A stretch of 64,000 nt of DNA, taken from Pseudanabaena sp. ABRG5-3 (lineage in GTDB: Bacteria > Cyanobacteriota > Cyanobacteriia > Pseudanabaenales > Pseudanabaenaceae). The notes below the pieces were generated by a model, which did no database searches, was not told where the DNA came from, and was given only the letters and a program-made list of their open reading frames with translations. The stretch spans positions 3,780,048 to 3,844,047 of the forward strand of contig NZ_AP017560.1 in assembly GCF_003967015.1 (NCBI RefSeq), given 5' to 3'. This document shows positions 4,203-63,165 of the stretch, piece after piece. The position numbers were made by a program, and so were the translations under genes. How positions within the stretch are numbered: position 1 is the first letter of the stretch; each line of letters starts with the position of its first letter.

Positions 4203-5801
4203 TTATTTAGTCAAGCTTGGTGCAGGTTGCGCTTGTATTGAAGCTAAACGTTTGTTGTCTCGTTTATTAGCTAATACTGGCACTGCATCACGGAGCACAC
4301 CAGCTAACTGAGTTGTGGTCGAATCGTACATTTGAGTAACGATTTTGGGATAGAACCCGATGCCGATGATGGGAATCAAAAGACAAGCGATGATAAATAC
4401 TTCGCGAGGTTCTGCATCTACAAGTTCTTGATGAGATGTAAGCTGAGTATTTTCCTTGCCATAGAAAATTTCACGCAACATCGACAACAGGTAGACAGGC
4501 GTTAAGATAACACCTACTGCCATGAGTAAGATAGCAATTACTTTAAAAGTGCCGCTATAGGCATCACTAGTAGCAAAGCCCACAAATACCATGACCTCAG
4601 CAACAAATCCGCTCATCCCGGGGAGAGCGAGGGAGGCAAGGGAGCAGGTCGTAAACATCGCAAAGATTTTCGGCATCTGTTGACCGACTCCGCCCATCTC
4701 ATCGAGAATCAGGGTATGTGTGCGATCATAGGTTGCGCCCACAAGGAAGAATAAGCTTGCGCCGATTAGTCCGTGGGAAATCATTTGCAACATTGCCCCA
4801 CTTGTACCGAGATCGGTAAACGAAGCTAAACCGATCAGCACAAAGCCCATGTGGGAAATTGATGAATAGGCAATTTTGCGTTTGAGGCTGCGCTGGGCAA
4901 AGGAGGTAAGAGCCGCGTAGATAATATTCACAATCCCCAAAATTACGAGGATAGGGGCAAAGTACGCATGAGCCTCAGGCAACATCCCCGCATTCATCCG
5001 CATCAGGGCATAACCACCCATTTTCAAAAGGATACCTGCAAGGAGCATGTGGACGGGTGCTGTAGCTTCACCATGTGCATCAGGTAGCCATGTATGCAGA
5101 GGAAAAATCGGCAGCTTGACCCCATAGGAAATCAAGAAAGCACCATAGGCTAGTAGCTGGAAGGTGAGGGGATAGTTTTTGTTAGCAAGGGTCTGCATAT
5201 CAAAGGAGATCGTATCGCCATAGAATGCCATGGCAAGCCCTGCGACAAGGATAAACAAAGAACCGATCGCTGTGTAGAGAATAAACTTGGTAGCGGCGTA
5301 GAGACGCTTGTAGCCCCCCCAGATCGATAGCAAGAGGTAAACGGGGATTAGCTCTAATTCCCATGTCAGGAAAAATAGCAGCATATCCTGTACGGCAAAG
5401 ACAGCAATCTGTGCGCCATACATCGATAGCAGTAAGAAATAGAATAAGCGTGGCTTCAGTGTGACGGGCCAGGATGCCAAGATTGCTAATGTGGTGATAA
5501 ATCCAGTCAGCATGACCAAGGGCATCGAGAGTCCATCAACGCCAACTGACCAATTTAGCCCCAGATCGGGAACCCATGCGTATTTCTCGACGAGTTGGAG
5601 ATTGGGGTTGCTGTAGTCATACTTCGTGCAGAAGGCATAGGCGATCGCCGCGAAGTCAATCAGTCCCACAACTAGCGAAAACCAGCGAATGGTTTTGCCG
5701 TCCCCTTTGTCTGGCACAAAGGCAACTAAGAGGGACATAAGTATGGGGAAGGCGATGATAAACGTGAGCCAAGGGAAGTTTTCGAGACTTAACATAATCA
5801 A
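4203..5801 (-). CDS. ndhD: NAD(P)H-quinone oxidoreductase chain 4 (NDH-1 subunit D)
   Basis: 532 residues, very hydrophobic, about 14 predicted membrane helices, normal length for NdhD. The antiporter-like core is clear: [17 protein letters not shown] with the conserved Glu of the proton channel, then [19 protein letters not shown] and [14 protein letters not shown]. It is a membrane subunit of the photosynthetic NDH-1 complex in thylakoids, which works in cyclic electron flow, respiration or CO2 uptake depending on the NdhD/NdhF isoform. Which isoform this is cannot be settled by eye. No ndhF is adjacent, so it appears monocistronic, with its own terminator. Confidence 0.95.
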
Positions 5802-6121
5802 AAGTAACCGTTGTAATTACCCACCCATTTTCTAGACAGTCATTGTACCTACGCTCTCTTGTTGAGTTTGCAGTTATTTATAGTTACTTAAACCTAGTCG
5901 ATCGCCATAAATCTCAAAATCAAGACTGGGATCATTACATCATCAGGGATTAGGCAGATTTGAGAAGCTTTAAATCAATTTGAAGTTTTGTAAAGAGAAG
6001 TTAACAAATAGAGACAATTGTTTACATATCCCTGATTTGGAGAACCTGTGGCTAGGGGTTTGCAATTTTCTGCTAATCTCGAAAGTGAATAAATTATTTT
6101 TTTAATAGAGAGATTTTAGGC
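5802..6121. other. divergent intergenic region between ndhD and psbU
   Basis: About 320 bases separating two outward-facing genes, so it must hold both promoters. A TGcTAATCT extended -10 lies at 6071-6079 for psbU. I see no small gene or RNA structure here. Confidence 0.45.
6071..6079 (+). promoter_or_regulatory. candidate extended -10 promoter of psbU
   Basis: TGcTAATCT at 6071-6079 matches an extended -10 element; the start point would be near 6086, 35 bases before the psbU ATG. The -35 region is poor, which fits an extended -10 promoter. Confidence 0.35.
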
Positions 6122-30997: not shown

Positions 30998-31024
30998 GAA
31001 AAAGCACCCAAAGGGTGCTTTTTC
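30998..31024 (+). terminator. intrinsic terminator of the aminopeptidase gene
   Basis: GAAAAAGCACCCaaaGGGTGCTTTTTC. Confidence 0.8.
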
Positions 31025-31079
31025 GCTAATGACTAATTGATCCCTCCCAGCCCCCTACAAATCCACCTACGTTTTTAGA

Positions 31080-31170
31080 TATAGCAACCCTAAATGGTTT
31101 GTGGAATCGCAACCCAAAGGGTTGCGATTCCACAAACCTAAAAATCTACAAATGTTTTAGGACTGATATA
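31080..31170. repeat. MITE-like palindromic repeat, family A copy 2
   Basis: It starts TATAGCAAcCCTAAATGG and ends TTTTAGGACTgATATA. The arms GTTTGTGGAATCGCAACCC and complement enclose AAAG. Compared with 40381-40471, both arms changed together (AATCGCAA against AAGCGCAC). Confidence 0.8.
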
Positions 31171-31216
31171 AAATATATTTTACCAAAATACTAAATTTAA
31201 TATGAAATAATGTTGT

Positions 31217-31630
31217 ATGGCAAAAGATTTATACCATGATCTTGTTAAACGCGCCCTAGAAAAAGATGGATGGGAAATAACTCACGATCCCTATGAATTG
31301 CGTGTAGGTGGTGTAGAAATGTATATAGATATTGGGGCTGAGCAGATTATTGGCGCTAATAAAGGAAATGATAAAATTGCGGTTGAAGTTAAAAGCTTTA
31401 TTAGTCCTTCAAGAATTTCTGATTTCCACTTAGCACATGGACAATTTTTAGATTATCGATATGCTTTGGAAGAAGTAGAACCAGAAAGAATTTTATATTT
31501 GGCTGTACCTGATTTTGTCTATCGAACCTTTTTTAACCTAGCCTTTATTAATAGAGTTATACAGCGTAGTCAACTGAATCTTTTAGTTTATGACTTAGAT
31601 AAGGAGAGTATTGAACAATGGATAAAGTAG
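31217..31630 (+). CDS. xisH: XisH family protein
   Basis: 137 residues. Typical XisH sequence: DLYHDLVKRALEKDGW, ITHDPY, DIGAEQIIGA, IAVEVKSF, FLDYRYAL and the C terminus LVYDLDKESIEQWIK. The D...EVK arrangement fits a PD-(D/E)XK nuclease-like fold. XisH and XisI were named as controllers of fdxN-element excision in heterocystous Anabaena, but they are widespread in cyanobacteria without that element, as here. The reading frame overlaps the start of xisI by 13 bases. Confidence 0.93.
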   Translation: MAKDLYHDLVKRALEKDGWEITHDPYELRVGGVEMYIDIGAEQIIGANKGNDKIAVEVKSFISPSRISDFHLAHGQFLDYRYALEEVEPERILYLAVPDFVYRTFFNLAFINRVIQRSQLNLLVYDLDKESIEQWIK

Positions 31631-31959
31631 CTATATATAGACAATATATTCAACAACTAATGCAAGAAAGAGCAGATCGTTCTATGCGATCCTCAAAGGA
31701 AGTTGAAGCTCAGACGATTTTTGATGTGGAGCATGACCATTATCAACTGGTTTATGTGGGTTGGAAACGTAATGATATAAGAGATTACGGATGTTTATTA
31801 CATCTGGATATTAAAGATGGAAAGATTTGGATTCAATATGATGGTACTGAAGGTGGTATTGCCTACGAGTTAGTGAAATTAGGTGTACCGAACCAAGATA
31901 TAGTTTTAGGATTTCAACCTGCTAGAGTTCGCTCTGCAACTGAGTTTGCTGTGGGTTAG
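31618..31959 (+). CDS. xisI: XisI family protein
   Basis: 113 residues, complete XisI: YRQYIQQLMQERADR, VEAQTIFDVEHDHYQLVYVG, IKDGKIWIQYDGTEGGIAYE and a C-terminal VLGFQPARVR. It pairs with XisH; the overlapping genes imply coupled translation. The next gene (mcrC) begins four bases after the stop, so xisH-xisI-mcrC appear to be one transcript. No excisionase target or recombinase is nearby. Confidence 0.93.
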   Translation: MDKVAIYRQYIQQLMQERADRSMRSSKEVEAQTIFDVEHDHYQLVYVGWKRNDIRDYGCLLHLDIKDGKIWIQYDGTEGGIAYELVKLGVPNQDIVLGFQPARVRSATEFAVG

Positions 31960-31963
31960 TAAT

Positions 31964-33259
31964 GTGCCGAAAATTGTAGAACTATCCTTATTTGAATATG
32001 AATTGAGCAATGGTTTTAATTGGACGGATCGAGATCAAGAGGCGATCGCAAAGTTAGAAAAAATTGTGGGTGATCGCCTCTTTAGTTTTGAATTTCATAA
32101 TGGTAAGCGAGAAATCAGAGCAAAACAATATGTGGGTGTGTTTCGATTGGGACAGCGCAAGGTGGAGGTTTTGCCGAAAATGTATCGCTTTCCTGAAAGT
32201 GCTAAGCAGGAAGCAGTCCGAAATTTGCTTTATATGTTGGAATATACTAACCAGTTAAATGTTAAGCAATATTCTCTGGCTTCTTTATACCAACAGAATC
32301 TCGATTGGTTTGAGATTTTGACAAAGTTATTTGCGACTAATCTTTTGGAAGAGTGGCAAAGAGGTGCATTTCGGAACTATCAATCGATGAGTGATACTTT
32401 GCCTGTTCTCAAGGGAACGTGGAATTTAACAGAACAGTTGCGTCGTCCTGAACGCAAGCATTTATTTGCAGTAATATTTGACGAATTTACTGCCGATAAT
32501 CAACTGAATCGGGTTTTGCGCTATGTGGTAGAAAGGCTGTATCAGTTAACGCGCAATTTCCATAATCGCCAAATGTTGCATGAGTTGCAGCAATGGATGG
32601 AAGAAGTAACTTTATTGCCAAGGGTGAATGCTGAAGATTTGCGATTAATTCCCATTACGCGCTTAAATCAACGCTTTGAGCCGCTTTTAAATCTGGCGCG
32701 TTTATTTCTAGAAAACGAGAGCTTGCAATTATCCAGTGGCAATTTCCAGACTTTTGCCTTTGCTTTAGATATGAATAAGCTGTTTGAGGAGTTCGTAATC
32801 AGCTTTATCGATCGCCATCGTCACGAAATTTTACCAAATCATTTACAGAATTGTGAGTTGTTGCCACAATCCCAGCATGAGACAAAATATCTTGCGACTA
32901 CAGAAGGTCAGGACGTATTCCAGTTAAAGCCCGATTTGGTGATGCGTCAAAAATCCAGTTTCCCTTTGATTATGGATACGAAGTATAAGAGATTGAAAGA
33001 AGGCGATCACAAGTTGGGCGTTTCACAGGCAGATTTCTATCAAATGTACGCCTATGCTCAACGTTACAAATGTCCGAATGTATTGCTGATTTATCCGCAA
33101 GTGGTGGGGATGTCGGAACTTAAGGCTAAATTTGAGATAGAAAGAGGTACGATTACCGCAGCGACGATTGATCTTTGTGGTGATTTGAGTAAGCAGAGTG
33201 AGCGTGATAAGCTAGTAGAGAGATTGAGAGGGCTTTTTGCAGATAGTCAAGGAGTGTGA
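31964..33259 (+). CDS. mcrC: McrC-like restriction endonuclease subunit
   Basis: 431 residues from a GTG at 31964 (an in-frame TTG at 31946 would overlap xisI). The McrC pattern is clear: YVGVFRLGQRKVEVLPKM, NLLYMLEYTNQL, LEEWQRGAFRNYQ, a middle helical region and a C-terminal PD-(D/E)XK nuclease with KPDLVMRQ and LIMDTKYKRL, so the catalytic D...DxK is present. McrC provides the cleavage activity of the modification-dependent McrBC system, whose GTPase McrB is normally encoded just upstream. Here xisHI precede it, and the only mcrB-like gene lies 1.06 kb downstream and is frameshifted. Confidence 0.88.
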   Translation: MPKIVELSLFEYELSNGFNWTDRDQEAIAKLEKIVGDRLFSFEFHNGKREIRAKQYVGVFRLGQRKVEVLPKMYRFPESAKQEAVRNLLYMLEYTNQLNVKQYSLASLYQQNLDWFEILTKLFATNLLEEWQRGAFRNYQSMSDTLPVLKGTWNLTEQLRRPERKHLFAVIFDEFTADNQLNRVLRYVVERLYQLTRNFHNRQMLHELQQWMEEVTLLPRVNAEDLRLIPITRLNQRFEPLLNLARLFLENESLQLSSGNFQTFAFALDMNKLFEEFVISFIDRHRHEILPNHLQNCELLPQSQHETKYLATTEGQDVFQLKPDLVMRQKSSFPLIMDTKYKRLKEGDHKLGVSQADFYQMYAYAQRYKCPNVLLIYPQVVGMSELKAKFEIERGTITAATIDLCGDLSKQSERDKLVERLRGLFADSQGV

Positions 33260-33273
33260 AATGGCAATGCTCA

Positions 33274-33507
33274 TCAAATACTCTCACGGGGAAAGTTTAG
33301 CGACATCTCTTGTCTGACTTCGGCAATGTCTTCATCGCTGATGTTAGCACCACGCCACAAACCACGCAGAGATCTACGAGGCTTAGGTTCTATATTCAGT
33401 TCACGCTTAATTTCGGGGGTTACTTTTTCGATTAAGTTAATTTTATCTACAAGCGAAAGTTGCTTGGCTAGTTCTAAGACTTGCTCTAGGGTTACAACTT
33501 GAGTCAT
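33274..33507 (-). CDS. orphan antitoxin-like protein
   Basis: 77 residues. It has the pattern of cyanobacterial antitoxins that precede PIN toxins: LEQVLELAKQLSLVDKINLI, a basic Pro-rich hinge (KPRRSLRGLWRG) and ISDEDIAEVRQEM at the end. No toxin gene follows; the stop is 14 bases from the convergent mcrC stop, so the toxin has been lost or never existed. It may be left over from an insertion or loss event. Confidence 0.7.
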   Translation of the reverse strand: MTQVVTLEQVLELAKQLSLVDKINLIEKVTPEIKRELNIEPKPRRSLRGLWRGANISDEDIAEVRQEMSLNFPRESI

Positions 33508-33643
33508 AAGTTTAGACTTTTTGTAAGCTTTGATTTGTATGCTTTGATTTTACTCTAACAGTATCGGCATGAGTTGTCATGGCGCTTGTTAGGCGCAAAA
33601 TATGCATTAGAATATAATTCAGTATTGTTTAGGAGCATTCACA

Positions 33644-34147
33644 ATGTTGCTGCAAGAACTTAAAGAACAGGCTTATAAATTGTCAAAAAGCGATCGCCTT
33701 GATCTTATTGCGGCGCTAGTTCAGTCATTACAAAATCAGGTTGAGATTGATGATTGGCAATATTTAGCAAAACGAAATCATCCTTGGCGAAAACAGTTAT
33801 ATGTTAAGGGACAAAAATTACTTGCTTCGACTATTTGGCTAGACATGATAGCTAATGAAATGTCCATTGAAGATGCATCTGATAATTGGGATTTGCCTTT
33901 AGCTGCAATTGATGAGGTTGTTCGCTATTGTGAAAGTCATCAGAACTTGTTGAAGTTAGAGGCAGAAATAGGATTTTATAAATTGAATTATAATAATGAA
34001 AAATTGAATTTAGATAACGATGAACAGAAATTGTTAGATAATATTGAACATGATAATTGGGTAAGTACTCCTGATTCTAAATTGGAAATTAAGCGTTTTC
34101 AAGATATCGCTAAACGTCAGGTTTCGACACAAAAAATTGAATTATAG
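33644..34147 (+). CDS. DUF433-type antitoxin fused to a truncated second antitoxin
   Basis: 167 residues. Residues 1-30 are an antitoxin-type helix (LKEQAYKLSKSDRLDLIAAL). Residues 35-110 are a DUF433-like segment (HPWRKQLYVKGQKLLASTIW, NWDLPLAAIDEVVRYCESHQ). From about 125 on the sequence changes to that of a CopG/BrnA-like antitoxin (DNDEQKLLDNIEHDNW, EIKRFQDIAKRQVS), which stops at TAG 34145. The same frame continues to TAA 34271 with the missing ribbon-helix-helix part, so the second module is broken by a stop. No toxin gene follows. Confidence 0.65.
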   Translation: MLLQELKEQAYKLSKSDRLDLIAALVQSLQNQVEIDDWQYLAKRNHPWRKQLYVKGQKLLASTIWLDMIANEMSIEDASDNWDLPLAAIDEVVRYCESHQNLLKLEAEIGFYKLNYNNEKLNLDNDEQKLLDNIEHDNWVSTPDSKLEIKRFQDIAKRQVSTQKIEL

Positions 34148-34273
34148 ATATCAATACAAGACCCCGATAAAATTTATAGCTTGGCTAATCAACTTGGTAT
34201 TTCTGTGTCTAATTTTGCTAAAAATATTATTTATAAATATTTAAAAGGTGAATTAGTTGAAAAATCCAAATAA
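34148..34273 (+). pseudogene. remnant of a CopG/BrnA-like antitoxin C terminus
   Basis: Continuing in frame past the TAG at 34145-34147, 41 codons read SIQDPDKIYSLANQLGISVS, NFAKNIIYKYLKGELVEK, then TAA. This is the ribbon-helix-helix end of a BrnA-type antitoxin whose start lies in the preceding gene. A single stop mutation separates the two. Confidence 0.65.
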
Positions 34274-34314
34274 TTTAATAGAATTGATAAAATATATTAA
34301 AATAAAATAAAAAT

Positions 34315-35722
34315 ATGACTAATCAAAATAGATATTGGACAATACTTACTGGTTTTGAAAATAAAAAATGGGACGTATTCAAACAGCATGATCTTGTTGC
34401 AATTGACTTTCCAATTCTTAAATCACAAGGATTAGAAGGTCGTAGCATCATTGAAAACTTTATTAGTGGAATAAATATTGGAGACTTCATTATAGCTATT
34501 ATCCCTAAAAAACATACTGTTCTGGGTGTCGGTATAGTTAAGAGTGAATATATCTCACCACAAGATCCAAATAATCCATTACATAACCTTTCAACTTTTA
34601 AAGACATACGTTTTGTAGAATGGCTTACTAAAGACAAAGTAGAAGATTCTAGTTTAAGCTTTCTTGCAAATTTAAAAGATGTCGTGTCAAGCAGTTTAAC
34701 TAATCAAGAATACAATCAAATTAGAAAGTCATATTCAATCAAACACAGTATCAATTTACCTTCCTATTCTTCCATCTCTCCAACTTATTCTCAAAGAAAA
34801 CTCAAATTATTATTACAGAAGATTTCTAAACACAAAAATATAATTCTTTATGGTACATCTGGCACAGGTAAAACTTATACAGCCAAGCAGTTTTCTCAAC
34901 TTTTAGTCAGATCTCAAAAACCCGAAACAGTAAAATATTGTAAGCTTGTTACTTTTCATCAATCTCTTTCTTATGAAGAGTTTATAGAAGGGATCAAGCC
35001 ATTAACAAATAAATCAGGAGAAATTAGTTATGAAGTTGTTGATGGTGTATTCAAGCAAATTTGTAAACAGGCACTGTCAGATCTCCAAAAAACATATTTG
35101 ATTATTATCGATGAAATCAACAGAGCTAATATTGCTAAAGTTTTTGGCGAATTAATTACACTGATTGAAGATGATAAAAGGATTGGAGCGCGTAACGAAT
35201 TAAAAGTTACCTTGCCTTACTCCCAAGAAGAATTTGGCGTACCGAAGAATCTCTATAATATTAGGAACAATGAACACAAGCGATCGCTCGATTGCTCTTC
35301 TAGACATTGCCCTCCGCCGCAGGTTTACCTTTATCGAACTCAAACCTGATCCCGAACTCCTTAGAGACAAAGTTATAGATGGCATCAAACTAGACCGATT
35401 GCTCATCCAACTAAACAAACGTATTACCCTTCTCATTGGACGCGATTATCAAATTGGGCATAGCTACTTGATGAATGTCGAGAATCTAGAAGATCTAATC
35501 TTCATTTGGTATCACCGCATCATTCCATTACTACAAGAATATTTTTATCACGACAGCAATAGATTAAAAGCCGTGATAGGTAACGAATTTATGCAAGTAC
35601 CTGATATTAGTGATATTCCCGACTCACTCAAGGAATTTCGAGGTAATGAGACCCAGTATGAAATTGCTGAACTACAAGGAGATGAATTTAGCGCAGCAAT
35701 CTTAAACCTGACGAGTGGGTAA
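34315..35722 (+). pseudogene. mcrB: McrB-like AAA+ GTPase interrupted by one frameshift
   Basis: Two overlapping frames together encode about 468 residues of an McrB-type protein. Residues 1-120 resemble an EVE/PUA-like reader ([38 protein letters not shown]). The AAA+ motor has Walker [24 protein letters not shown], Walker [13 protein letters not shown] and the McrB segment [11 protein letters not shown]. The frame then breaks: after NLYN-I, one extra base (A at or near 35263) displaces [20 protein letters not shown] into the +1 frame, starting at about 35264. That piece holds sensor 1 and the Arg finger, so the gene as sequenced makes no complete motor. Sequencing error or programmed shifting is possible. 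Confidence 0.8.
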
Positions 35723-35822
35723 TAGGCGATCGCTATTTATCAGAATCCACCGTAACCAAAGGATTTTTAGGTGGGATGACACTATATGATAAAGACAATC
35801 GAGATTTTCTCATTTAACCTAA

Positions 35823-36242
35823 ATGCTCCAAATTACCAAATATACATCTCTCTCACTTGACGAAATTAATATTAGTGCAGTGCGATCACAAGGTGCTGGT
35901 GGTCAAAATGTAAATAAAGTCTCGACGGCAATCCATCTGCGTTTTGATATTAACGCTTCTTCCCTATCGCCTATTTATAAGGAACGTCTACTCAATTTAA
36001 GCGATCGCCGCATTACCAAAGACGGCGTAATCATCATTAAGGCCCAGCAACATCGGACTCAAGAACAGAATAAGGAAGATGCACTGACAAGACTGCAACA
36101 GTTAATCCAAAGCATCACGATCACACAGCCCAAACGCAAACCAACTAAACCCTCACGCAGCGCTCAAAATCGGAGAATCGATGATAAGAGTAAGCGTGGG
36201 GAAATTAAGGCGTTAAGAGGCAATATTAAAGATGTAGGCTAA
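35823..36242 (+). CDS. arfB: ArfB-type peptidyl-tRNA hydrolase (GGQ release factor-like)
   Basis: 139 residues. Domain 3 of class I release factors with the catalytic GGQ (VRSQGAGGQNVNKV, about 23-35), then FDINASSLSPIYKERLL, and a basic tail (KRKPTKPSRSAQNRR, KRGEIKALRG) that threads into the mRNA channel. There are no codon-recognition domains. ArfB/YaeJ rescues ribosomes stalled without a stop codon. Intact and of usual length; convergent with the CHAT-TPR gene, with stops two bases apart. Confidence 0.93.
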   Translation: MLQITKYTSLSLDEINISAVRSQGAGGQNVNKVSTAIHLRFDINASSLSPIYKERLLNLSDRRITKDGVIIIKAQQHRTQEQNKEDALTRLQQLIQSITITQPKRKPTKPSRSAQNRRIDDKSKRGEIKALRGNIKDVG

Positions 36243-36244
36243 GG

Positions 36245-39154
36245 TTAATTGCCATTGCCTATGAGAATGAAGGCAGACCAAAAGTAGGGGTGTTGGAATT
36301 TATCTTGTTTTGACTGTAGGAGACTAAGCTGGGCTTCGCGCAAAGAGTTAATGACATTATTACCCTTCTGTAACTGCGTATAAAAACTACCCATCAGTGA
36401 TTGTGTCCCCTGATCGCTCACTGTCCAGAGCGAGGCGATCGCCGCCCTTGCACCCGTACGTTGAATTTGATAACCAAAACCGAGAATCTCCTCACCAGTA
36501 CCCACCACACCACCGAGAGCAGTCTGACAGGCACTAAGAACTACTAATTGCGTATTTGGCAACTTCCATTCGCGCAACTCACGTAAATTGAGGCGATCGC
36601 CATTTCCCATCAGCACAAAGGAGTCCTCAGGTGTACCACGCACAAAGGCAGCATGGGTGGCTAAGTGGATCAGATTATATTCACCAAATTGAGAAACCGT
36701 AGCATTGCGATTGAAAAAAGTATCGACTAGTTTCGTAGTATTAGGGAAAGTTGCCGCGATTTTATCAATTTCTTTACCAGCAAAGGGTAAACCCGTAAAA
36801 GCGAACTGCTCATTGCCGATCGCAAATTTGATTTCTCCTTGAGTGAATGCTGCGGCGATCGCCTTGAGTGGAGCTTTCCCAAATGTTTGGGCATTGAGAA
36901 CCCCAGATGTCGTCAGAGCCGTTAAATAATTAAAGCTGAAACTCTCGACTAGCCATTGCTTACCGTCATACAGTGCGGCAAGGGGAATATAACGCATCTG
37001 TCCATCGGGAGCATAGAGTAGAAGTTCAATATTATTGAGCTTGAGATCAGAGGCAATCGGTTGAATCAGATATTTGTAGAGACGTTGAGAAGATACCTTC
37101 ACATCGGCAGATTCAAAATCTTGTAAATCAGCTCGAAAATCTTGGAGCAGTTTTGTTAATTCTTGGGGTTGCACGGCAATGGTGCGGACAACTGGTGCAG
37201 ATTTGGCAGGTAAGAGAACTAAAAAAAGCTGATCTTCAAATTGTAATGGATAAAACAAGGCTGCCCGATCGCCAAATTTTTGGACATCAGCAATCAGAGA
37301 TTTAGATGTAGTTAGCCCAGAACTTTGCTGAGTGGATGCTTGTTGGATTTGCGTAGTTAAGGGAGAGCCGCCGATGAGGGATGGCAAATCCGTCTTAATT
37401 GCCACTTGTTCAGGAGCTAAAAGGGTAATTCCTGTTGCTGTGCGCTCGTTCCCTTTGACATCTCGGAGATAGTCTTGCAGTTCTTGCACTTTGAGCAGAT
37501 CGATAATTTGGATGGCTTCGTAAATCCGTCCTTGTTGCAATAGCAATTTAGCTAGATAACGATAGGTATAGGAGATGCTCTGTTTATAGGCAGCTCGATC
37601 TTCACGGGGCAGCATCCTGATCGATTGCCGAATCGATTCGCGGATATTTACCGACTGCTTGAGATAGGCAGTAGCTAATTCTATTTGCTTTTGCTGAGAT
37701 AGCAAATCGCCAATATTCGCCAGTACGACTGCTTCGGTACTGTGATCGCCAACTTCCCTGACAATATTCAGCGCCTTTTGATAGGCAGCGATCGCATCAC
37801 CTTGTTTATTGAGATTGGCATAGGCTCGACCAAGATTACTAAGAGATACACCGATACCTGTGCGATCGCGAACCCTCTCATATATCGCCAGAGCTTGCTG
37901 ATGAAACGTAATTGCTTGTTCTGTCTGTCCCAAACGAGTATAGGTACTGCCAATATTGTCTAGGGTGATGCCAATTCCTAAATCATTACCAATATCTTGA
38001 TAGATATTTCTTGCCTTTTGCAAGAACGCGATCGCCTCTTTATATTTACCACTATTGCTATAGAGTTGCGCCAGATTATTGAGATTGTTTGCCTGTCCTG
38101 CTTTAACCGTTACATCATTGTTAGCAGTATCGCCCACAGTGGCTCGCACCGACAGCCCACGACTAGTGAGAGTTGGATTGCTATTGTCCTCACCAAGAAC
38201 ATCATGGAGTAGTTCGATTTCTGTTTTTTTTAATCCTGCCACATCCTCTGTCGTGAGTTTGAAGTAGATCTTAGTTGCCTGATCAGCAAAATCTAAGGCT
38301 CGACGGTTTTGACCAAGACTAAAATATAGAGCGCTTAAATTATTGAGAATAGCTGCCTCATCGCCACGATAACAACAGAGTGTACGAACTAGGGCTAGAG
38401 CCTGCTCATAGGACTCCAAAGCCTGCTGGTATTGGGTTTGGTTAGCATAGATTACGCCAATATTATTTAAGGTTTGTACCCTACCGATGATATCATTGCG
38501 CTCAATGGCAATCGGTAGCATTTGCTGATAACTCGTTAAGGCACGATCATATTGGGAAGATTTGAAATAGATCGAAGCCATACGTGCTAGCGTCACGCTT
38601 TCACTGGTTTGTAAGGATTCGCGATCACCTTTTTTTGATTTCAAGCGATCACGAAAAATATCAAGAGCCTGTTGATAGATGGGCAAGGCTTGGTCATATT
38701 GACGTTGCTTGTCATGGACATCGGCAATATATTGCAAGGTGTAGCCAATATCCACAGGATCGCCATCGGGAGACTTAGCAATTTCCTTAGCAATTTTCAA
38801 GGCTTGTTGGAAATAGGGCATCGCCTTGTCATACTGCCCCGTCGTTAAATAGACTTCTCCTAAAACATTTAAGGTATCCCGCTCTCCCCCCGTGGCATTC
38901 CATTTGCGAAATAGTTCTAGTGCTTTTTGCAGATCAGCGATCGCACCTTGTGGGTCGGCTTTTTGTAAGCGATCGTATCCCGATTGTTTGAGGTAAACTG
39001 CCTCTGTAATTTGCTGTTTTCGCAATTCATCATTATTAGAGCTTTGGGCGATCGCCTTTAACCCAAGTAATTCTAATTTTGGCGTTACGGCAATAGGCAT
39101 ACCCACAGCCGTTAACAATATTCCTAAAACCGCAAAATTACGAACTAAGCGCAT
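36245..39154 (-). CDS. secreted TPR-CHAT domain protein
   Basis: 969 residues from the ATG at 39154, chosen because AGGAAGG lies five bases ahead (an upstream start at 39199 has none). A signal peptide or anchor (NFAVLGILLTAVGMPIAV) precedes about ten tetratricopeptide repeats (for example AMPYFQQALKIAKEI, DQALPIYQQALDIF, QQALESYEQALALV). The C terminus is a CHAT caspase-like domain with the catalytic pair His (LIHLATHAAF, about 834) and Cys (VVLSACQTALGG, about 876). TPR-CHAT proteins are numerous in cyanobacteria and are thought to be proteases; substrates are unknown. Confidence 0.92.
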   Translation of the reverse strand: MRLVRNFAVLGILLTAVGMPIAVTPKLELLGLKAIAQSSNNDELRKQQITEAVYLKQSGYDRLQKADPQGAIADLQKALELFRKWNATGGERDTLNVLGEVYLTTGQYDKAMPYFQQALKIAKEIAKSPDGDPVDIGYTLQYIADVHDKQRQYDQALPIYQQALDIFRDRLKSKKGDRESLQTSESVTLARMASIYFKSSQYDRALTSYQQMLPIAIERNDIIGRVQTLNNIGVIYANQTQYQQALESYEQALALVRTLCCYRGDEAAILNNLSALYFSLGQNRRALDFADQATKIYFKLTTEDVAGLKKTEIELLHDVLGEDNSNPTLTSRGLSVRATVGDTANNDVTVKAGQANNLNNLAQLYSNSGKYKEAIAFLQKARNIYQDIGNDLGIGITLDNIGSTYTRLGQTEQAITFHQQALAIYERVRDRTGIGVSLSNLGRAYANLNKQGDAIAAYQKALNIVREVGDHSTEAVVLANIGDLLSQQKQIELATAYLKQSVNIRESIRQSIRMLPREDRAAYKQSISYTYRYLAKLLLQQGRIYEAIQIIDLLKVQELQDYLRDVKGNERTATGITLLAPEQVAIKTDLPSLIGGSPLTTQIQQASTQQSSGLTTSKSLIADVQKFGDRAALFYPLQFEDQLFLVLLPAKSAPVVRTIAVQPQELTKLLQDFRADLQDFESADVKVSSQRLYKYLIQPIASDLKLNNIELLLYAPDGQMRYIPLAALYDGKQWLVESFSFNYLTALTTSGVLNAQTFGKAPLKAIAAAFTQGEIKFAIGNEQFAFTGLPFAGKEIDKIAATFPNTTKLVDTFFNRNATVSQFGEYNLIHLATHAAFVRGTPEDSFVLMGNGDRLNLRELREWKLPNTQLVVLSACQTALGGVVGTGEEILGFGYQIQRTGARAAIASLWTVSDQGTQSLMGSFYTQLQKGNNVINSLREAQLSLLQSKQDKFQHPYFWSAFILIGNGN

Positions 39155-57816: not shown

Positions 57817-59424
57817 GTGGATAAGAAAAAAGTACTGCTACTGTCTGCAAATCCATCGAATACCGATCGCCTGAGAGTGGAGGCAGAATTTCGGGAAATC
57901 GAAGAATGTTGTCAGAAGTCGAGTTTGCGCGATCGCTTTGCCATTGTCGCGAAGGGCGCAGTACGCATTGATGACCTACAGCCAATCTTGCTTCAGGAAG
58001 TGCCTCGCGTAGTACATTTCTCAGGACATGGGGCAGCCGAAAATGGTCTGGTTTTAGAAAATGATGCAGGAGATTGGCAACTTGCGCCGACGGAGGCTTT
58101 AGCAGAATTATTTCGGATTTTGCAAAATGGGATCGATTGCGTGGTGCTAAATGCTTGTTTCTCACAGGTGCAAGCGGAGGCGATCGCCCGTTATGTGCCC
58201 TATGTATTGGGGATGAATCAGGCGATTGGCGATGTGGCGGCGATCGAATTTGCTAAAGGCTTCTATGGGGCTTTGTTTGAAGGGAAATCAGTTAAGGATG
58301 CCTTTGATTTAGGTAAAAATCTTATTGCCTTAAAAAATATTCCTGAAGCCCAAACGCCTGTGTTGTTAGAACGCAGTTATGAAAGTCAGGTGTTACCGAG
58401 GGTGAATCTAGCGATTGAAGAACCTGAAGGGGCGGTAAGGATTGGCTCACAATTTTATATTCCCCGATCGCCCCAAGAAGAACAAGCCTTTAAAGCGATC
58501 GCCATGCCCCATGCCCTAATCCGCTTGAAATCTCCCGATCGCATGGGTAAGTCTTCGCTATTGGTAAGAGTCTTGGAAGAAGCGCGGCGGCTGGGCAATC
58601 GCACCACATGGCTAGATTTACAAAAGTGCGATCGCCGATTTTTTGAAAATATGGATCGCTTTTTGCAGTGGTTTTGTGCGGTGATTGGGCGCGATTTTGG
58701 GGTGAAGGCGAAACCGACCGACGATTGGGATGAGATGTTTGGCGCAAATGGTAACTGTGAGGAGTTTTTTGAAAGATATTTATTAAATGATGATGACGAT
58801 CGCCCTTTAGTAATTGCGATCGAAAATCTGGATCGCATATTTTTGCATGAAGCGATCGAGGTGGATTTTTGCGGTTTGTTGCGCGGTTGGCATGAGCAGG
58901 GCAAGCACGATCGCACATGGGGCAAATTGCGGCTAGTGCTTGCCTATTCAATGGAATCTTTTACGACTAAAGACATTAATCAATCACCATTTAATGTCGG
59001 TACGCCCATTGATTTGGATGAATTTACAACTACGCAAGTTCATGAGCTTGCAGAACTGCATGGTTTATCAGCATCTCAAATAGAACCGATCGCTGAATTG
59101 ATTGGTGGACATCCCTATCTAGTGCGACTCGCTTTCTATAATTTAGCTAGTGGCGCAAATTCCCTTGAGCAGATTATCCAAAGTGCATCAACAGAAGTAG
59201 GGCTATTTGGGAAACATCTCACCACTCGTTTAGCGAAGGTGGAAAGAGATGGTCATCTTACGGAAGTTTTGAGATCGCTGGTTAATTCACCGCAACCGAT
59301 CCGTTTTGATCTGGCGACTACGGCAAAATTAGATGGGATGGGTTTAATATTACGCACAGAAACAGGTGTGATTATTCGCAATGAATTATATCGTCGTTAT
59401 TTTCAGAACTGCTTAAGCAATTAA
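57817..59424 (+). CDS. CHAT protease domain fused to AAA-like (AAA_35) ATPase
   Basis: 535 residues from a GTG start. Residues about 5-185 form a CHAT caspase-like domain: VLLLSANPSNTDRLRVEAEF, catalytic His71 in HFSGHG, Cys114 in LNACFS and GKSVKDAFDLGKNL. Residues about 215-520 are an AAA_35-type P-loop NTPase: YIPRSPQEEQAFKAI, Walker A-like DRMGKSS (Lys245), ELIGGHPYLVRLA late in the domain. It resembles NLR-like, ATP-gated protease sensors of bacterial conflict systems. It heads a run of same-strand genes; TAGGAG links it to the nuclease gene 15 bases on. Substrate unknown. Confidence 0.85.
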   Translation: MDKKKVLLLSANPSNTDRLRVEAEFREIEECCQKSSLRDRFAIVAKGAVRIDDLQPILLQEVPRVVHFSGHGAAENGLVLENDAGDWQLAPTEALAELFRILQNGIDCVVLNACFSQVQAEAIARYVPYVLGMNQAIGDVAAIEFAKGFYGALFEGKSVKDAFDLGKNLIALKNIPEAQTPVLLERSYESQVLPRVNLAIEEPEGAVRIGSQFYIPRSPQEEQAFKAIAMPHALIRLKSPDRMGKSSLLVRVLEEARRLGNRTTWLDLQKCDRRFFENMDRFLQWFCAVIGRDFGVKAKPTDDWDEMFGANGNCEEFFERYLLNDDDDRPLVIAIENLDRIFLHEAIEVDFCGLLRGWHEQGKHDRTWGKLRLVLAYSMESFTTKDINQSPFNVGTPIDLDEFTTTQVHELAELHGLSASQIEPIAELIGGHPYLVRLAFYNLASGANSLEQIIQSASTEVGLFGKHLTTRLAKVERDGHLTEVLRSLVNSPQPIRFDLATTAKLDGMGLILRTETGVIIRNELYRRYFQNCLSN

Positions 59425-59439
59425 TTAGGAGTGTAATCA

Positions 59440-60060
59440 ATGCCTAAGACCTTACAAGCAACGGAAATTGATTTGGCAAAACTAGAGGAGCTTTTTGCGA
59501 TCGCGCAGTCGAGTGATGCTGAGTTTTTTGATGAATGGCGTGGTGACTTACCTAAACTGACCGAGAACGAACAGTTATCCCTTGATGATCTGAAAACGGA
59601 TTATCTACATCTATCGAAACACTCACTATTGGAACCACTTGTAAAAATGGTGGTGCTAGCGCCAATTTTGAAATTAGCAGGTTTCTATCGCGATCCCTTT
59701 TATCTCAAAGCCGAGCAGGTAGTAAATATTCTCTCGCAGGATCAAGATATTCTCATTCAAGGACGCATCGATATTTTGGTGTTTAAGCCACCTTTTTGGA
59801 TAGTAGTGATTGAGGCGAAGAGAGCGGCTTATTCTGTAGAAGTTGGCATTCCCCAAGCATTGACCTACATGATGGCAAATCCCCATCCCGATCGCCCTGT
59901 TTTTGGACTTGTCACAAATGGCAGTGAGTTTATCTTTCTCAAACTTCAGCATCAAGACAGTCTAAAATATGCCGAGTCAGATTTGTTTTCGATTAAGCGT
60001 AGCAATGATTTATATACAGTTGTTAGTATTTTGAAACATCTTGCTCAGTTAGCAATTTAG
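59440..60060 (+). CDS. restriction-type PD-(D/E)XK nuclease-like protein
   Basis: 206 residues. The N-terminal helical part leads to LLEPLVKMVVLAPILKLAGF and the nuclease core GRIDILVFKPPFWIVVIEAK, where Asp, Glu and Lys form the D...ExK site; then QALTYMMANPHPDRPVFGLV and TNGSEFIFLKL, as in type I restriction HsdR N-terminal domains. There is no helicase part. A good ribosome binding site (TAGGAG) and a 15-base gap to the CHAT-AAA gene imply translation from the same message. Likely DNA or RNA nuclease; target unknown. Confidence 0.82.
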   Translation: MPKTLQATEIDLAKLEELFAIAQSSDAEFFDEWRGDLPKLTENEQLSLDDLKTDYLHLSKHSLLEPLVKMVVLAPILKLAGFYRDPFYLKAEQVVNILSQDQDILIQGRIDILVFKPPFWIVVIEAKRAAYSVEVGIPQALTYMMANPHPDRPVFGLVTNGSEFIFLKLQHQDSLKYAESDLFSIKRSNDLYTVVSILKHLAQLAI

Positions 60061-60157
60061 CTTTTCATCCTGCGGATGTGCGCCCCTACACTGGCTATGC
60101 GATCGCTTAAGCTTAAATCAATATGCAAAACTTCATTAATCTGGAGCGGTAAAGGAC

Positions 60158-60859
60158 ATGGTACTTGCAACACACGTCATCAAATCAGCTATCCCTCCCG
60201 AATATCCCTCTAGCGATGGTGAGCCTGTGGCAGAAACCTACGACCATTTTTATGCGATCGCTGTACTGTTGGAAATACTGCGGCAATATTTAACAGGCAG
60301 ACAAGCGACGGTTTTGGGCAATCAGTTTCTTTACTACGCCCAAGGATTCCCCAGAATGCGTGTAGCTCCCGATGTAATGGTGATTTTTGATGTGGCGGCT
60401 GGCGGTCGGGACAATTACAAAATTTGGGAAGAGGGACAAGTACCTACGGTGATTTTTGAAATTACCTCCAAAAGTACGCAGATTACGGATATTGGCTTTA
60501 AGCGCGATCTCTATGCTCAGATGGGTGTGCAGGAATATTGGCTATTTGACCCAAAAAATGAATGGTTAGAGCAACAATTGCAAGGTTATCGCCTCAAGGG
60601 TGAACAATATGAGCCGATTATCGACGGACAGAGTTTAGTTTTAGGGTTGCAGCTATCGATTGAGGACAAAAAAATTGCCTTGCACCGTCTGGACAATGGC
60701 GAAAAGTTACCCTTTCCTTCTGAGCTTGCGGAACAAGTAAATCAAGAGCGTCAAGCTAAATTAGAAGCTGAACAGGCAAAGTTGCAAGCTGAACAAGCTA
60801 AACAAGAACTTGAGGTATTGTTGCAACGCTACCGTGATCGCTATGGAGAATTAGAATAA
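60158..60859 (+). CDS. Uma2 family endonuclease with coiled-coil tail
   Basis: 233 residues. Uma2/DUF820 core: HFYAIAVLLEILRQYL, RMRVAPDVMVIFDV, PTVIFEITSKSTQITDIGFK, LYAQMGVQEYWLFDPKNEW. The PD...E-x-(T/S)SK arrangement (VAPDVMV, FEITSKS) is the family nuclease site. A coiled coil at 190-228 (KLEAEQAKLQAEQAKQELEV) is appended. Uma2 proteins are very numerous in cyanobacteria with no settled role. The stop overlaps the start of the membrane AAA gene (TAATG). Confidence 0.9.
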   Translation: MVLATHVIKSAIPPEYPSSDGEPVAETYDHFYAIAVLLEILRQYLTGRQATVLGNQFLYYAQGFPRMRVAPDVMVIFDVAAGGRDNYKIWEEGQVPTVIFEITSKSTQITDIGFKRDLYAQMGVQEYWLFDPKNEWLEQQLQGYRLKGEQYEPIIDGQSLVLGLQLSIEDKKIALHRLDNGEKLPFPSELAEQVNQERQAKLEAEQAKLQAEQAKQELEVLLQRYRDRYGELE

Positions 60860-63165
60860 TGACTTTTAATTATCAAGTTGGTGGTAGTCTCCCTGCGGAT
60901 GCGCCTAGTTATGTGGAGCGCCAATGCGATCGCGACTATTACAACCTCCTTAAAGAGCGTAAATATTGCTATGTGTTTAACTGTCGGCAGATGGGGAAAT
61001 CGAGTTTGCGGGTGCGGGTGACGCATAAGTTGCAAGCGGAGGGGATTGTGTGCGCGACGATTGATCCGCAGAAGATTGGGGTGGAGGTAACTTGTGAGCA
61101 GTGGTATGCCAGCGCGATTCGGAGTTTGGTAGGGGATTTGGATTTAAAAAGTAAGTTTGACTTGCGGAGTTGGATTAGGGAACGGGAATTGCTGTCACCT
61201 GTGCAGCGTTTTGCGGAGTTTATTGAAACAGTCGTTTTACAAGAGCTTGATGCGCCAATTGTGATTTTTGTGGAAGAAATAGATCGCCTCTTGAGTCTCA
61301 AATTTGGGATGGATGATTTCTTTGGATTAGTAAGGTCATTTTTTGAAGATCGTCCGACTAAGCCTGACTATAATCGCCTCACTTTTTCCTTCTTGGGAGT
61401 GGCGACACCGACGGATTTGATTCAGAGTCATAATACTTCAGCGTTTAATATTGGCTATGCAGTGGAGATGGCGGGGTTTACGCTGACGGAGGCAGGGCAA
61501 TTGATGCAGGGGTTGGCGAGTAAGGTGGCGAATCCGCAGGATTATCTAGCTGAGGCGGTAAAGTGGACGGGGGGACAGCCTTTTCTGATTCAGCGTTTGT
61601 TGGGAATGATGGAGAAGGAGTTAGCAGGAATCGCACCACCTGAGAATATTGCGGGTTGGGTTGAGAATTTAGTACAGGAACGAATTGTCACGAATTGGGA
61701 ATCGCAGGATGCGCCGCCACATTTGACGACAATTAGGGATCGCGTGCTGAGTGTGGAGGAGAAGTTGCGGGGGCGGATGTTGGGTTGCTATCAGCAGGTG
61801 TTGGAAGATGGGGAGTTGGCGGATGATCGCAGTGAGGAGCGATCGAAGTTGCGGTTGACGGGGTTGGTGGTGCGACGGGAAGGAAAGTTGATTTCCTATA
61901 ATCCGATTTATAGGGCGGTGTTTAATAACGCATGGGTGGAGGGTCAGTTAGCGGATTTGCGTCCAGAGTTTTATGGTTCGGCATTTCGGGCTTGGCGGGA
62001 TGCGGAGGAGGGGCAGAATCAGGGATTTCTGTTGCGGGGTCAGGCGTTGGAGGAGGCGGAGGTTTGGGCGCGGGGGAAGAGGCTGAGTGATATTGATGAG
62101 CAGTTTTTACTGGAAAGTCAAGAGTTTGAAAAAAACGAGAGAAATCGTGAGCTAGAATCTGAGCGATTAGCACGAGAAACTCTTGAAGAAGCGAACTGTA
62201 TTCTTGCAGAAGCTAGCAAAAAAGCAGAGTTGTCACTTACTAAAGCACAAAAAAGATTACAGCACTTTGTCAAGGAAGAAATACAAGCAAAAAATCGCCT
62301 ATCAATGGCAGAAAAGTTAACACGACAGATGCAATTAGCTGGAATTAGTTTAGGAGTAATAGCTGGAGTAATTGTAATAGGTGTATTGGCATGGTCTAGC
62401 AATACACGTAAAGAAACATTAAGGTTGATCGAGAAAGAAAAACAGCAAGAAATAGAAAAAGCAAAACAGATTGCAGAGAAAGAAACACATGCAGCTCAGG
62501 AAACAAAACAGGCGGCTGAGCAAGAGCTAAATAAAATCAAAAAAGAAATAGATAAGAGAAACTATGAAATAAAAGAGTTGAATAAATCTTACGATAACAA
62601 AATAGAAGATTTAAAAAAGGAAACAAATAAGAGTATACAATCCGTGACAAATAATGCTAATAAAACTATTGAGGAAAAGGATGCAACATTAAAGAGAAAA
62701 AATGTTGAGTATAGCTCTACAAGAGCACGTGAATTGATTGTTAACGGTGTAATTGCTGCTCAAAAGGGCAAAATTCAAGAAGCACTTAAGTATTTTAGTG
62801 AATCCCAACAATATGATCAAAATGTAAAAATATCCTCCGAACAATGGTATCAGCTATGCTGGAATGGAAATGTTTTTAAGGTTAGCAAAGCCGTAGCATT
62901 TGCTTGTGAAAAAGCTGTTGAAGAAGCTTATAAAGATAATACTTCCGAAGACAATATAGCCCTCTATCATGATAGCCGTGGAGTGTCAAGGGCAGTTTCA
63001 GGCAACCATGAAGGTGCAATTGAAGACTTTGAAAAATATATAGCAAGGTATAGAAAAAGGAGTGTTACCTTGACAGATCAGCGAAAAGAATGGATTAAAT
63101 CTTTACGCAAACAAATTAATCCATTTACAGAACAAGAGTTAGAAAATTTAAGATATGGAGAATGA
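60859..63165 (+). CDS. AAA_35 ATPase with coiled coils, one membrane helix and TPR-like end
   Basis: 768 residues. Residues 1-360: AAA_35-type NTPase with Walker A NCRQMGKSS (Lys47) and Walker B VIFVEEID (135-142), related in kind to the ATPase part of the CHAT protein upstream. About 360-415: WxxG-type linker. About 415-480: coiled coil. About 493-513: membrane helix (LAGISLGVIAGVIVIGVLAW). About 515-620: long Lys/Glu coiled coil. About 620-745: helical TPR-like end. The first 415 codons are G-rich and the rest AT-rich, a sharp change at about 62.1 kb. Translation is probably coupled to uma2. Function unknown. Confidence 0.82.
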   Translation: MTFNYQVGGSLPADAPSYVERQCDRDYYNLLKERKYCYVFNCRQMGKSSLRVRVTHKLQAEGIVCATIDPQKIGVEVTCEQWYASAIRSLVGDLDLKSKFDLRSWIRERELLSPVQRFAEFIETVVLQELDAPIVIFVEEIDRLLSLKFGMDDFFGLVRSFFEDRPTKPDYNRLTFSFLGVATPTDLIQSHNTSAFNIGYAVEMAGFTLTEAGQLMQGLASKVANPQDYLAEAVKWTGGQPFLIQRLLGMMEKELAGIAPPENIAGWVENLVQERIVTNWESQDAPPHLTTIRDRVLSVEEKLRGRMLGCYQQVLEDGELADDRSEERSKLRLTGLVVRREGKLISYNPIYRAVFNNAWVEGQLADLRPEFYGSAFRAWRDAEEGQNQGFLLRGQALEEAEVWARGKRLSDIDEQFLLESQEFEKNERNRELESERLARETLEEANCILAEASKKAELSLTKAQKRLQHFVKEEIQAKNRLSMAEKLTRQMQLAGISLGVIAGVIVIGVLAWSSNTRKETLRLIEKEKQQEIEKAKQIAEKETHAAQETKQAAEQELNKIKKEIDKRNYEIKELNKSYDNKIEDLKKETNKSIQSVTNNANKTIEEKDATLKRKNVEYSSTRARELIVNGVIAAQKGKIQEALKYFSESQQYDQNVKISSEQWYQLCWNGNVFKVSKAVAFACEKAVEEAYKDNTSEDNIALYHDSRGVSRAVSGNHEGAIEDFEKYIARYRKRSVTLTDQRKEWIKSLRKQINPFTEQELENLRYGE

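What the first reader, a model, noticed from the sequence alone, without database searches (positions are those of the whole stretch)
34315..35722. McrB-like GTPase broken by a single-base frameshift in the sensor motif
Walker A, Walker B and the N-terminal reader lie in one frame. The [20 protein letters not shown] segment and the rest lie in the next frame. One extra A at or near 35263 explains the break exactly. Either the restriction system has just been inactivated, the base is a sequencing error, or expression needs frameshifting.
Basis: seen in the sequence. Interest (0 to 1): 0.55.

Follow-up and report, generated by a model that had tools for sequence, protein, structure and literature searches.

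The report
Cyanobacterial McrB gene split by frameshift
A defence gene of a cyanobacterium carries one extra DNA letter that cuts its protein short just before the catalytic motif, while every close relative compared has the gene intact; this is most simply a recent loss-of-function mutation or a sequencing error, not a new kind of system.

Summary
A Pseudanabaena-type genome carries mcrC (31946-33259) and an mcrB whose frame changes just before its signature motif GTMNTSDRS (35264-35290). All 8 relatives that cover the site read straight through; the window alone has one extra base, placed at 35257 by alignment. The 5' ORF (34315-35349, 344 aa) keeps Walker A and B, then runs into 30 missense residues. 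It lacks the MNxxDRS loop and the arginine pair on which GTPase activity depends in Thermococcus McrB (PMC7680126). The 3' part is stop-free and looks constrained, so the break is very recent or is an error. Programmed frameshifting is not supported. Frameshifts seem rare in this assembly: one other filtered candidate in 400 kb. A neighbouring antitoxin-like ORF carries a nonsense codon where one relative has a sense codon. I favour recent inactivation (0.6) over error (0.33); no reads were available. Side finding: relatives share McrC and the GTPase core but differ in N-terminal and inserted modules. Ordinary overall.

The parts
31946..33259 (+). mcrC, nuclease partner, intact (PF10117); the start conserved in relatives lies some codons in, at about ...ELSLFEYE
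   Evidence: E 1.1e-73; only match in the genome; 7 relatives, 81.6-85.2% identical
34315..35349 (+). 5' ORF of the split mcrB, 344 aa: unique N-terminal part, Walker A, Walker B, then 30 missense residues
34315..34794 (+). N-terminal part, putative specificity (reader) domain; residues 42-106 resemble a domain inserted in another McrB
   Evidence: (no close relative found)
34852..34875 (+). Walker A GTSGTGKT
35101..35127 (+). Walker [10 protein letters not shown]
35257..35257 (+). extra base found in none of 8 relatives (AT-rich stretch, so the exact place is uncertain by a few bases); net +1 frame change
35264..35722 (+). 3' part of mcrB in the other frame, stop-free to its end: GTMNTSDRS signature loop (35264-35290), ALRRR (35309-35323), C-terminal region
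33644..34273 (+). antitoxin-like ORF between mcrC and mcrB, stopped by TAG at 34145-34147; the frame is open again to 34270, and its second half with the piece behind the TAG aligns with one continuous ORF in L024

Best explanation
This is a normal McrBC (Type IV, modification-dependent restriction) locus of a Pseudanabaena-type cyanobacterium in which mcrB has very recently gained one base just before its signature loop. Shown: the frame change, its position, that relatives are intact, that no second copy was found, that both halves are otherwise well kept. Inferred: translation gives a 344-aa protein with a reader-like domain, Walker A and Walker B but without the MNxxDRS loop, the arginine pair and the C-terminal part, so no GTP-driven ring forms, McrC has no motor, and the restriction system is off in this strain.
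For: One window-only column in an alignment with 8 of 8 relatives. The two pieces abut at one profile position. Mutants of the MNxxDR Asn and Asp and of two arginines impair GTPase activity, the arginine mutants also the hexamer, in Thermococcus McrB (PMC7680126, passages read). Few frameshifts in the assembly: 1 other filtered candidate in 400 kb of G000, 0 in 400 kb of G022, where 55 of 128 simulated indels pass that filter. The site is not a homopolymer. The adjacent antitoxin-like ORF has a nonsense codon where L024 has CAG, a second lesion and not an indel. The window has private changes at 5 of 89 otherwise invariant sites after the break, against 0 to 4 in each of 8 relatives counted the same way.
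Against: The 3' part has no stop before its end over 152 codons, and its pairwise dN/dS against the three nearest relatives is 0.081-0.087, no higher than between relatives: no clear decay, as also expected if the base is an error. McrC is intact. The 5-of-89 excess is small; when relatives are judged among themselves, L027 also has 5 (of 94). The antitoxin lesion may be unrelated. Unfiltered frame-change calls, most of them probably gene overlaps and not checked one by one, are more numerous in the G000 sample (52) than in G022 (38).
Confidence: 0.6

Rival explanations
1. The extra base is a sequencing or assembly error and the strain carries an intact, working mcrB.
For: Everything else in the gene is well kept: stop-free 3' part, low dN/dS, intact McrC. 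The assembly has 8 contigs, one of 4.8 Mb, six of 110-215 kb and one of 12.6 kb, which suggests long reads (inference), whose residual errors are mostly indels (recalled). A second frameshift was seen in the 400-kb sample, in a NACHT gene.
Against: The site is not a homopolymer. Filtered candidates are rare (1 in 400 kb), so residual indel errors are few if they exist. Completeness is listed as 99.81%.
Confidence: 0.33
2. The gene is expressed through programmed +1 ribosomal frameshifting or transcriptional slippage.
For: Both halves are open and the break lies within conserved coding sequence.
Against: 8 of 8 relatives need no shift at this place. No homopolymer run for slippage. The 5' frame has no stop at the break; it runs 85 bases further. 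No Rfam match at gathering thresholds in 31000-36500.
Confidence: 0.03
3. The two halves are made separately (the second from an internal start such as TTG 35234 or ATG 35270) and work together as a split McrB.
For: Possible starts exist in the second frame.
Against: The first ORF stops about 80 to 115 bases after those starts, so there is no close coupling; the split falls within the AAA core between Walker B and the loop that replaces Sensor I; none of 8 relatives is split there.
Confidence: 0.03

Closest known systems
McrBC of Escherichia coli (PDB 6HZ4, 6UT6) and the GTPase subunit in PDB 6UT3 and 6UT5 (Thermococcus gammatolerans McrB; organism recalled and from PMC7680126)
   Same: GTPase core: phmmer E 1.3e-37 (6UT3) to 1.5e-29 (6UT6) for window 34795-35256; signature MNxxDRS present in the DNA; McrC partner close by
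   Different: The signature loop and everything after it are out of frame; the N-terminal part has no match to any PDB chain at E up to 10
Intact McrB of other Pseudanabaena (among them lw0831, FACHB-1277, FACHB-1998, CAN_BIN31, ULC187bin1)
   Same: GTPase core between TFHQS and the break 77-84% identical to the window in 7 relatives; 3' part 69-81% in 8; McrC 81.6-85.2% in 7
   Different: No frame change; N-terminal parts and the insert after Walker A without blastp match to the window's at E up to 1e-3
EVE-type specificity domains of McrB (PF01878)
   Same: Position and size of the N-terminal part; local likeness to a domain inserted in the McrB of L125; a relative, L019, has an EVE domain in its insert
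   Different: Neither the window's part nor L125 reaches PF01878

Membership tests
McrB GTPase (Type IV restriction) | Walker A and Walker B of an AAA+ core | tested here: met
   PF07728 E 7.4e-13; NF008457 E 3.5e-31 (below that model's full-length cut-off, as expected for a fragment)
McrB GTPase (Type IV restriction) | MNxxDRS signature loop in the same reading frame as the Walker motifs | tested here: not met
   MNTSDRS is encoded but one frame over. The DNA is a disrupted mcrB gene; the predicted product is not a complete McrB
McrB GTPase (Type IV restriction) | McrC partner gene close by | tested here: met
   PF10117 E 1.1e-73 at 31946-33259
McrB GTPase (Type IV restriction) | GTP-dependent cleavage of modified DNA | not testable with these tools
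   needs biochemistry
Programmed frameshift gene | frame change conserved among orthologues | tested here: not met
   0 of 8 relatives have it
EVE-domain reader | match to PF01878 | tested here: not met
   no PF01878 match at E up to 10

The most novel reading that the evidence does not exclude
The Pseudanabaena mcrBC locus is a specificity-swapping site: McrC and the GTPase core stay while N-terminal and inserted reader modules are exchanged, much as target-recognition domains are in Type I systems. This genome is very rich in HIP1 (GCGATCGC 638 seen, 3 expected in 400 kb) and has five C5-cytosine methylase genes without internal stops. A newly acquired reader that recognises the host's own methylation would be self-toxic, and the single-base break would be the selected escape from that conflict.
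Probability: 0.08. Interest if true: 0.5.

Novelty: new member of a known kind. Interest (0 to 1): 0.2.

Why it matters
If real, loss of a Type IV restriction gene would change which modified phage and plasmid DNA the strain admits. More broadly, the locus shows McrB modules differing between close relatives while the motor stays, a tractable setting for asking what limits McrBC specificity in hosts whose own DNA is heavily methylated. The frameshift itself is ordinary; the known kind meant under novelty is a disrupted restriction gene.

Tried and rejected
Chimera at the break: G+C rises from 0.33 to 0.41 at the break in the window, but the same step (0.31-0.32 to 0.43-0.46) is present at the same place in all 7 relatives measured, so it is a property of the gene family and not evidence of a junction.

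Conserved recombination anchor around 35110-35325: DNA identity is high there, but 15 of 355 McrC stretches of equal length are at least as conserved at synonymous sites, so I dropped it.

Structure of the 314-aa 5' piece: single-sequence AlphaFold gave mean pLDDT 36.9, useless; no fold search was run.

Relatives of the N-terminal part: a viral contig (L122) aligned inside an ORF that reads like a phage tape-measure protein, judged spurious; the G625 and G489 matches lie in ORFs that read as methyltransferases and are taken as chance (both judgements by eye). No match in plasmids at E up to 1. A direct BLASTP of the N-terminal part with the EVE-bearing McrB of a Sinorhizobium plasmid gave nothing (E 25), although the whole 5' piece aligns with it from residue 64 on.

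Identifying the strain through its plasmids: no near-identical record for the two of seven smaller contigs tried.

Faults in my own scripts: the query called Cterm was translated in the wrong frame and its hits are not used. In one search the McrC codon alignment slipped for 3 of 7 relatives (L025, L021, L024), probably because a stop sign upstream of their true start was removed by the aligner; only L026, L029, L022 and L023 are used (dN/dS with the window 0.107-0.142). One search failed on wrong coordinates; 6 of its 7 proteins were then scanned, four with adjusted starts.

Full report
What the sequence shows. The window lies in a genome of 5.66 Mb in 8 contigs, 99.81% complete. Of 6 loci found in genome contigs with the 5' piece, 5 are Pseudanabaena and one is a Helicobacteraceae genome bin. 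ORFs in order: XisH 31217-31630, XisI 31618-31959, McrC 31946-33259, an antitoxin-like ORF 33644-34147, the McrB 5' ORF 34315-35349, and the McrB 3' frame to 35722. Walker A is at 34852-34875 and Walker B at 35101-35127 in one frame; GTMNTSDRS at 35264-35290 and ALRRR at 35309-35323 are in the next. NCBIfam NF008457 (McrB) matches the 5' piece over profile positions 184-327 and the 3' piece over 327-447, so nothing but the frame is lost between them.

Relatives. Of 58 genomes searched (own included), 12 have a match to the 5' piece at E up to 1e-10. I fetched 9 stretches from 8 of the relatives. Eight stretches, one per genome, cover the site, and all 8 read through it without a frame change; the ninth (L029, a contig end of G009) does not reach it. 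The alignment has one column present only in the window, at 35257. More distant McrB genes also read through there: L020 (the Helicobacteraceae bin), L010 and L011. So the frame change is private to this genome among those compared.

How old is it. After the break the other frame has no stop for 152 codons. Pairwise NG86 dN/dS of the 3' part between the window and its three nearest relatives (L023, L021, L028) is 0.081 to 0.087, and 0.125 to 0.243 with the other five; all 36 pairs of the 9 sequences range from 0.081 to 0.285. dS is 1.2 to 1.4 in the three near pairs, close to saturation, so the ratio is rough. At sites invariant in the others, the window differs at 5 of 89 after the break and 2 of 72 before it; counted the same way the relatives differ at 0 to 4 after and 0 to 4 before; judged among relatives only, L027 differs at 5 of 94 after the break and L026 at 8 of 80 before it. 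This is at most a hint of relaxed constraint. The gene was under selection for most of the time since it parted from its relatives.

Error or mutation. I wrote a frame-aware coding model, trained on 371 kb of coding sequence of this genome. On 128 simulated single-base indels it called a frame change within 150 bases in 127, and 55 passed the filter. On 400 kb of this genome, sampled evenly from contig C1, 1 of 52 frame-change calls passed the filter; on 400 kb of G022, 0 of 38. The unfiltered calls are expected to be mostly overlapping genes, but I did not check them one by one, and the model was trained on G000 and not on G022. The one filtered event splits a NACHT gene (NNH2 in one piece, NACHT and HEAT in the other). 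In the window with its flanks (104 kb) 2 of 12 calls passed: the mcrB break and one in the downstream flank that reads like two overlapping genes (by eye). With a stricter likelihood cut the mcrB break itself fell just below (7.0 against 8). Breaks of this kind thus seem rare in the assembly. This argues against a poor assembly but cannot tell a single error from a single mutation.

A second lesion. Between mcrC and mcrB an antitoxin-like ORF ends in TAG at 34145-34147; the same frame is open again to 34270. The last third of the ORF and the piece behind the TAG align with one continuous ORF in L024 (FACHB-1277), which has CAG at that codon. The downstream piece resembles a ribbon-helix-helix protein only weakly (E 0.12). 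No toxin partner was looked for.

Consequence. In Thermococcus McrB, mutation of Asn410 or Asp413 of the MNxxDR loop impairs basal GTPase activity, and mutation of Arg425 or Arg426 impairs it and disrupts hexamer formation (PMC7680126; passages read). The corresponding motifs of the window's gene, MNTSDR and ALRRR, lie after the break (correspondence by eye). A truncated product should therefore be inactive (inference).

The moving part. Among 7 relatives and the window, the GTPase core (TFHQS to the break) is 75-96% identical in all pairs, whereas the window's N-terminal part matches none of the 7 at E up to 1e-3; five relatives share one N-terminal family (29-83%), and two others each have their own. 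The stretch between Walker A and TFHQS is 33 residues in the window and 143 to 313 in the relatives; in the relative with the longest (L026, same contig as L019) it holds an EVE domain (PF01878, E 7.9e-7). Such inserts in McrB GTPases are known (PMC11090510; passages read). Of 388 genomes of the class only the own one matches the window's N-terminal part at E up to 0.001, and no plasmid does at E up to 1. Of 386 genomes of the phylum, 3 others match weakly at E up to 0.01; one of them (E 0.007) is an McrB, L125, where the matching domain sits inside the GTPase. Aligned alone the pair gives 35% over 65 residues. I read the part as a reader domain, moderately supported.

Context. The genome has five C5-cytosine methylase matches, all above the Pfam cut-off and without stops, and HIP1 (GCGATCGC) occurs 638 times in the 400-kb sample against 3 expected from base composition. 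Cyanobacteria with overrepresented HIP1 nearly always carry a CGATCG methylase, m5C in some groups and m4C in others; the same paper names Pseudanabaena PCC 7367 as one of the exceptions without a recognisable one (PMC4390886; passages read). Which specificities the five enzymes here have was not tested. An m5C-reading McrBC could face conflict with such a host. This is the basis of the novel case and remains speculation.

Literature. Five searches (McrBC with cyanobacteria, 15 of 60 papers listed; McrB with McrC, EVE and N-terminal domain, 15 of 26; Pseudanabaena with restriction and genome, 12 of 83; mcrB with frameshift and pseudogene, 15 of 17; McrB with specificity domain, domain swapping and recombination, 9 of 9) showed no title or abstract start that describes this locus. 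I read only passages of the three papers named above.

Noticed in passing
window 33274-33549 (-): Small antitoxin-like ORF (MTQVVTLEQVLELAKQ...) just after mcrC; the DNA there is 90-93% identical in 6 of 9 fetched stretches of relatives, in 5 of them separated from mcrC by extra DNA.
   Followed up: partly
window 34145-34147: TAG in an antitoxin-like ORF where relative L024 has CAG; the frame is open again behind it.
   Followed up: partly
L021 (G017), mcrB ORF of 551 aa: In this relative part of the antitoxin-like protein is in frame with, and directly before, the McrB GTPase, as if fused.
   Followed up: no
L125 772-2673 (-): McrB of another lineage of the phylum with a reader-like domain inserted in the GTPase just before Walker B.
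   Followed up: partly
L096 near 14884 (-): NACHT-HEAT gene (NNH2 domain in front) of the same genome split by a frame change.
   Followed up: partly
window 31217-31959 and L025 (mcrB on + strand) 4562-5830: XisH-XisI pair in front of mcrC; in L025 XisI is kept (96%) but the gene before it, 280 codons, matches no ORF of the window or its flanks.
   Followed up: no
window 57817-63165: CHAT-like protein (PADLOC chat, E 5.7e-17), a PD-(D/E)xK-like ORF at 59440-60060 (E 8.4e-9) and further large ORFs, perhaps a defence or signalling cluster.
   Followed up: no
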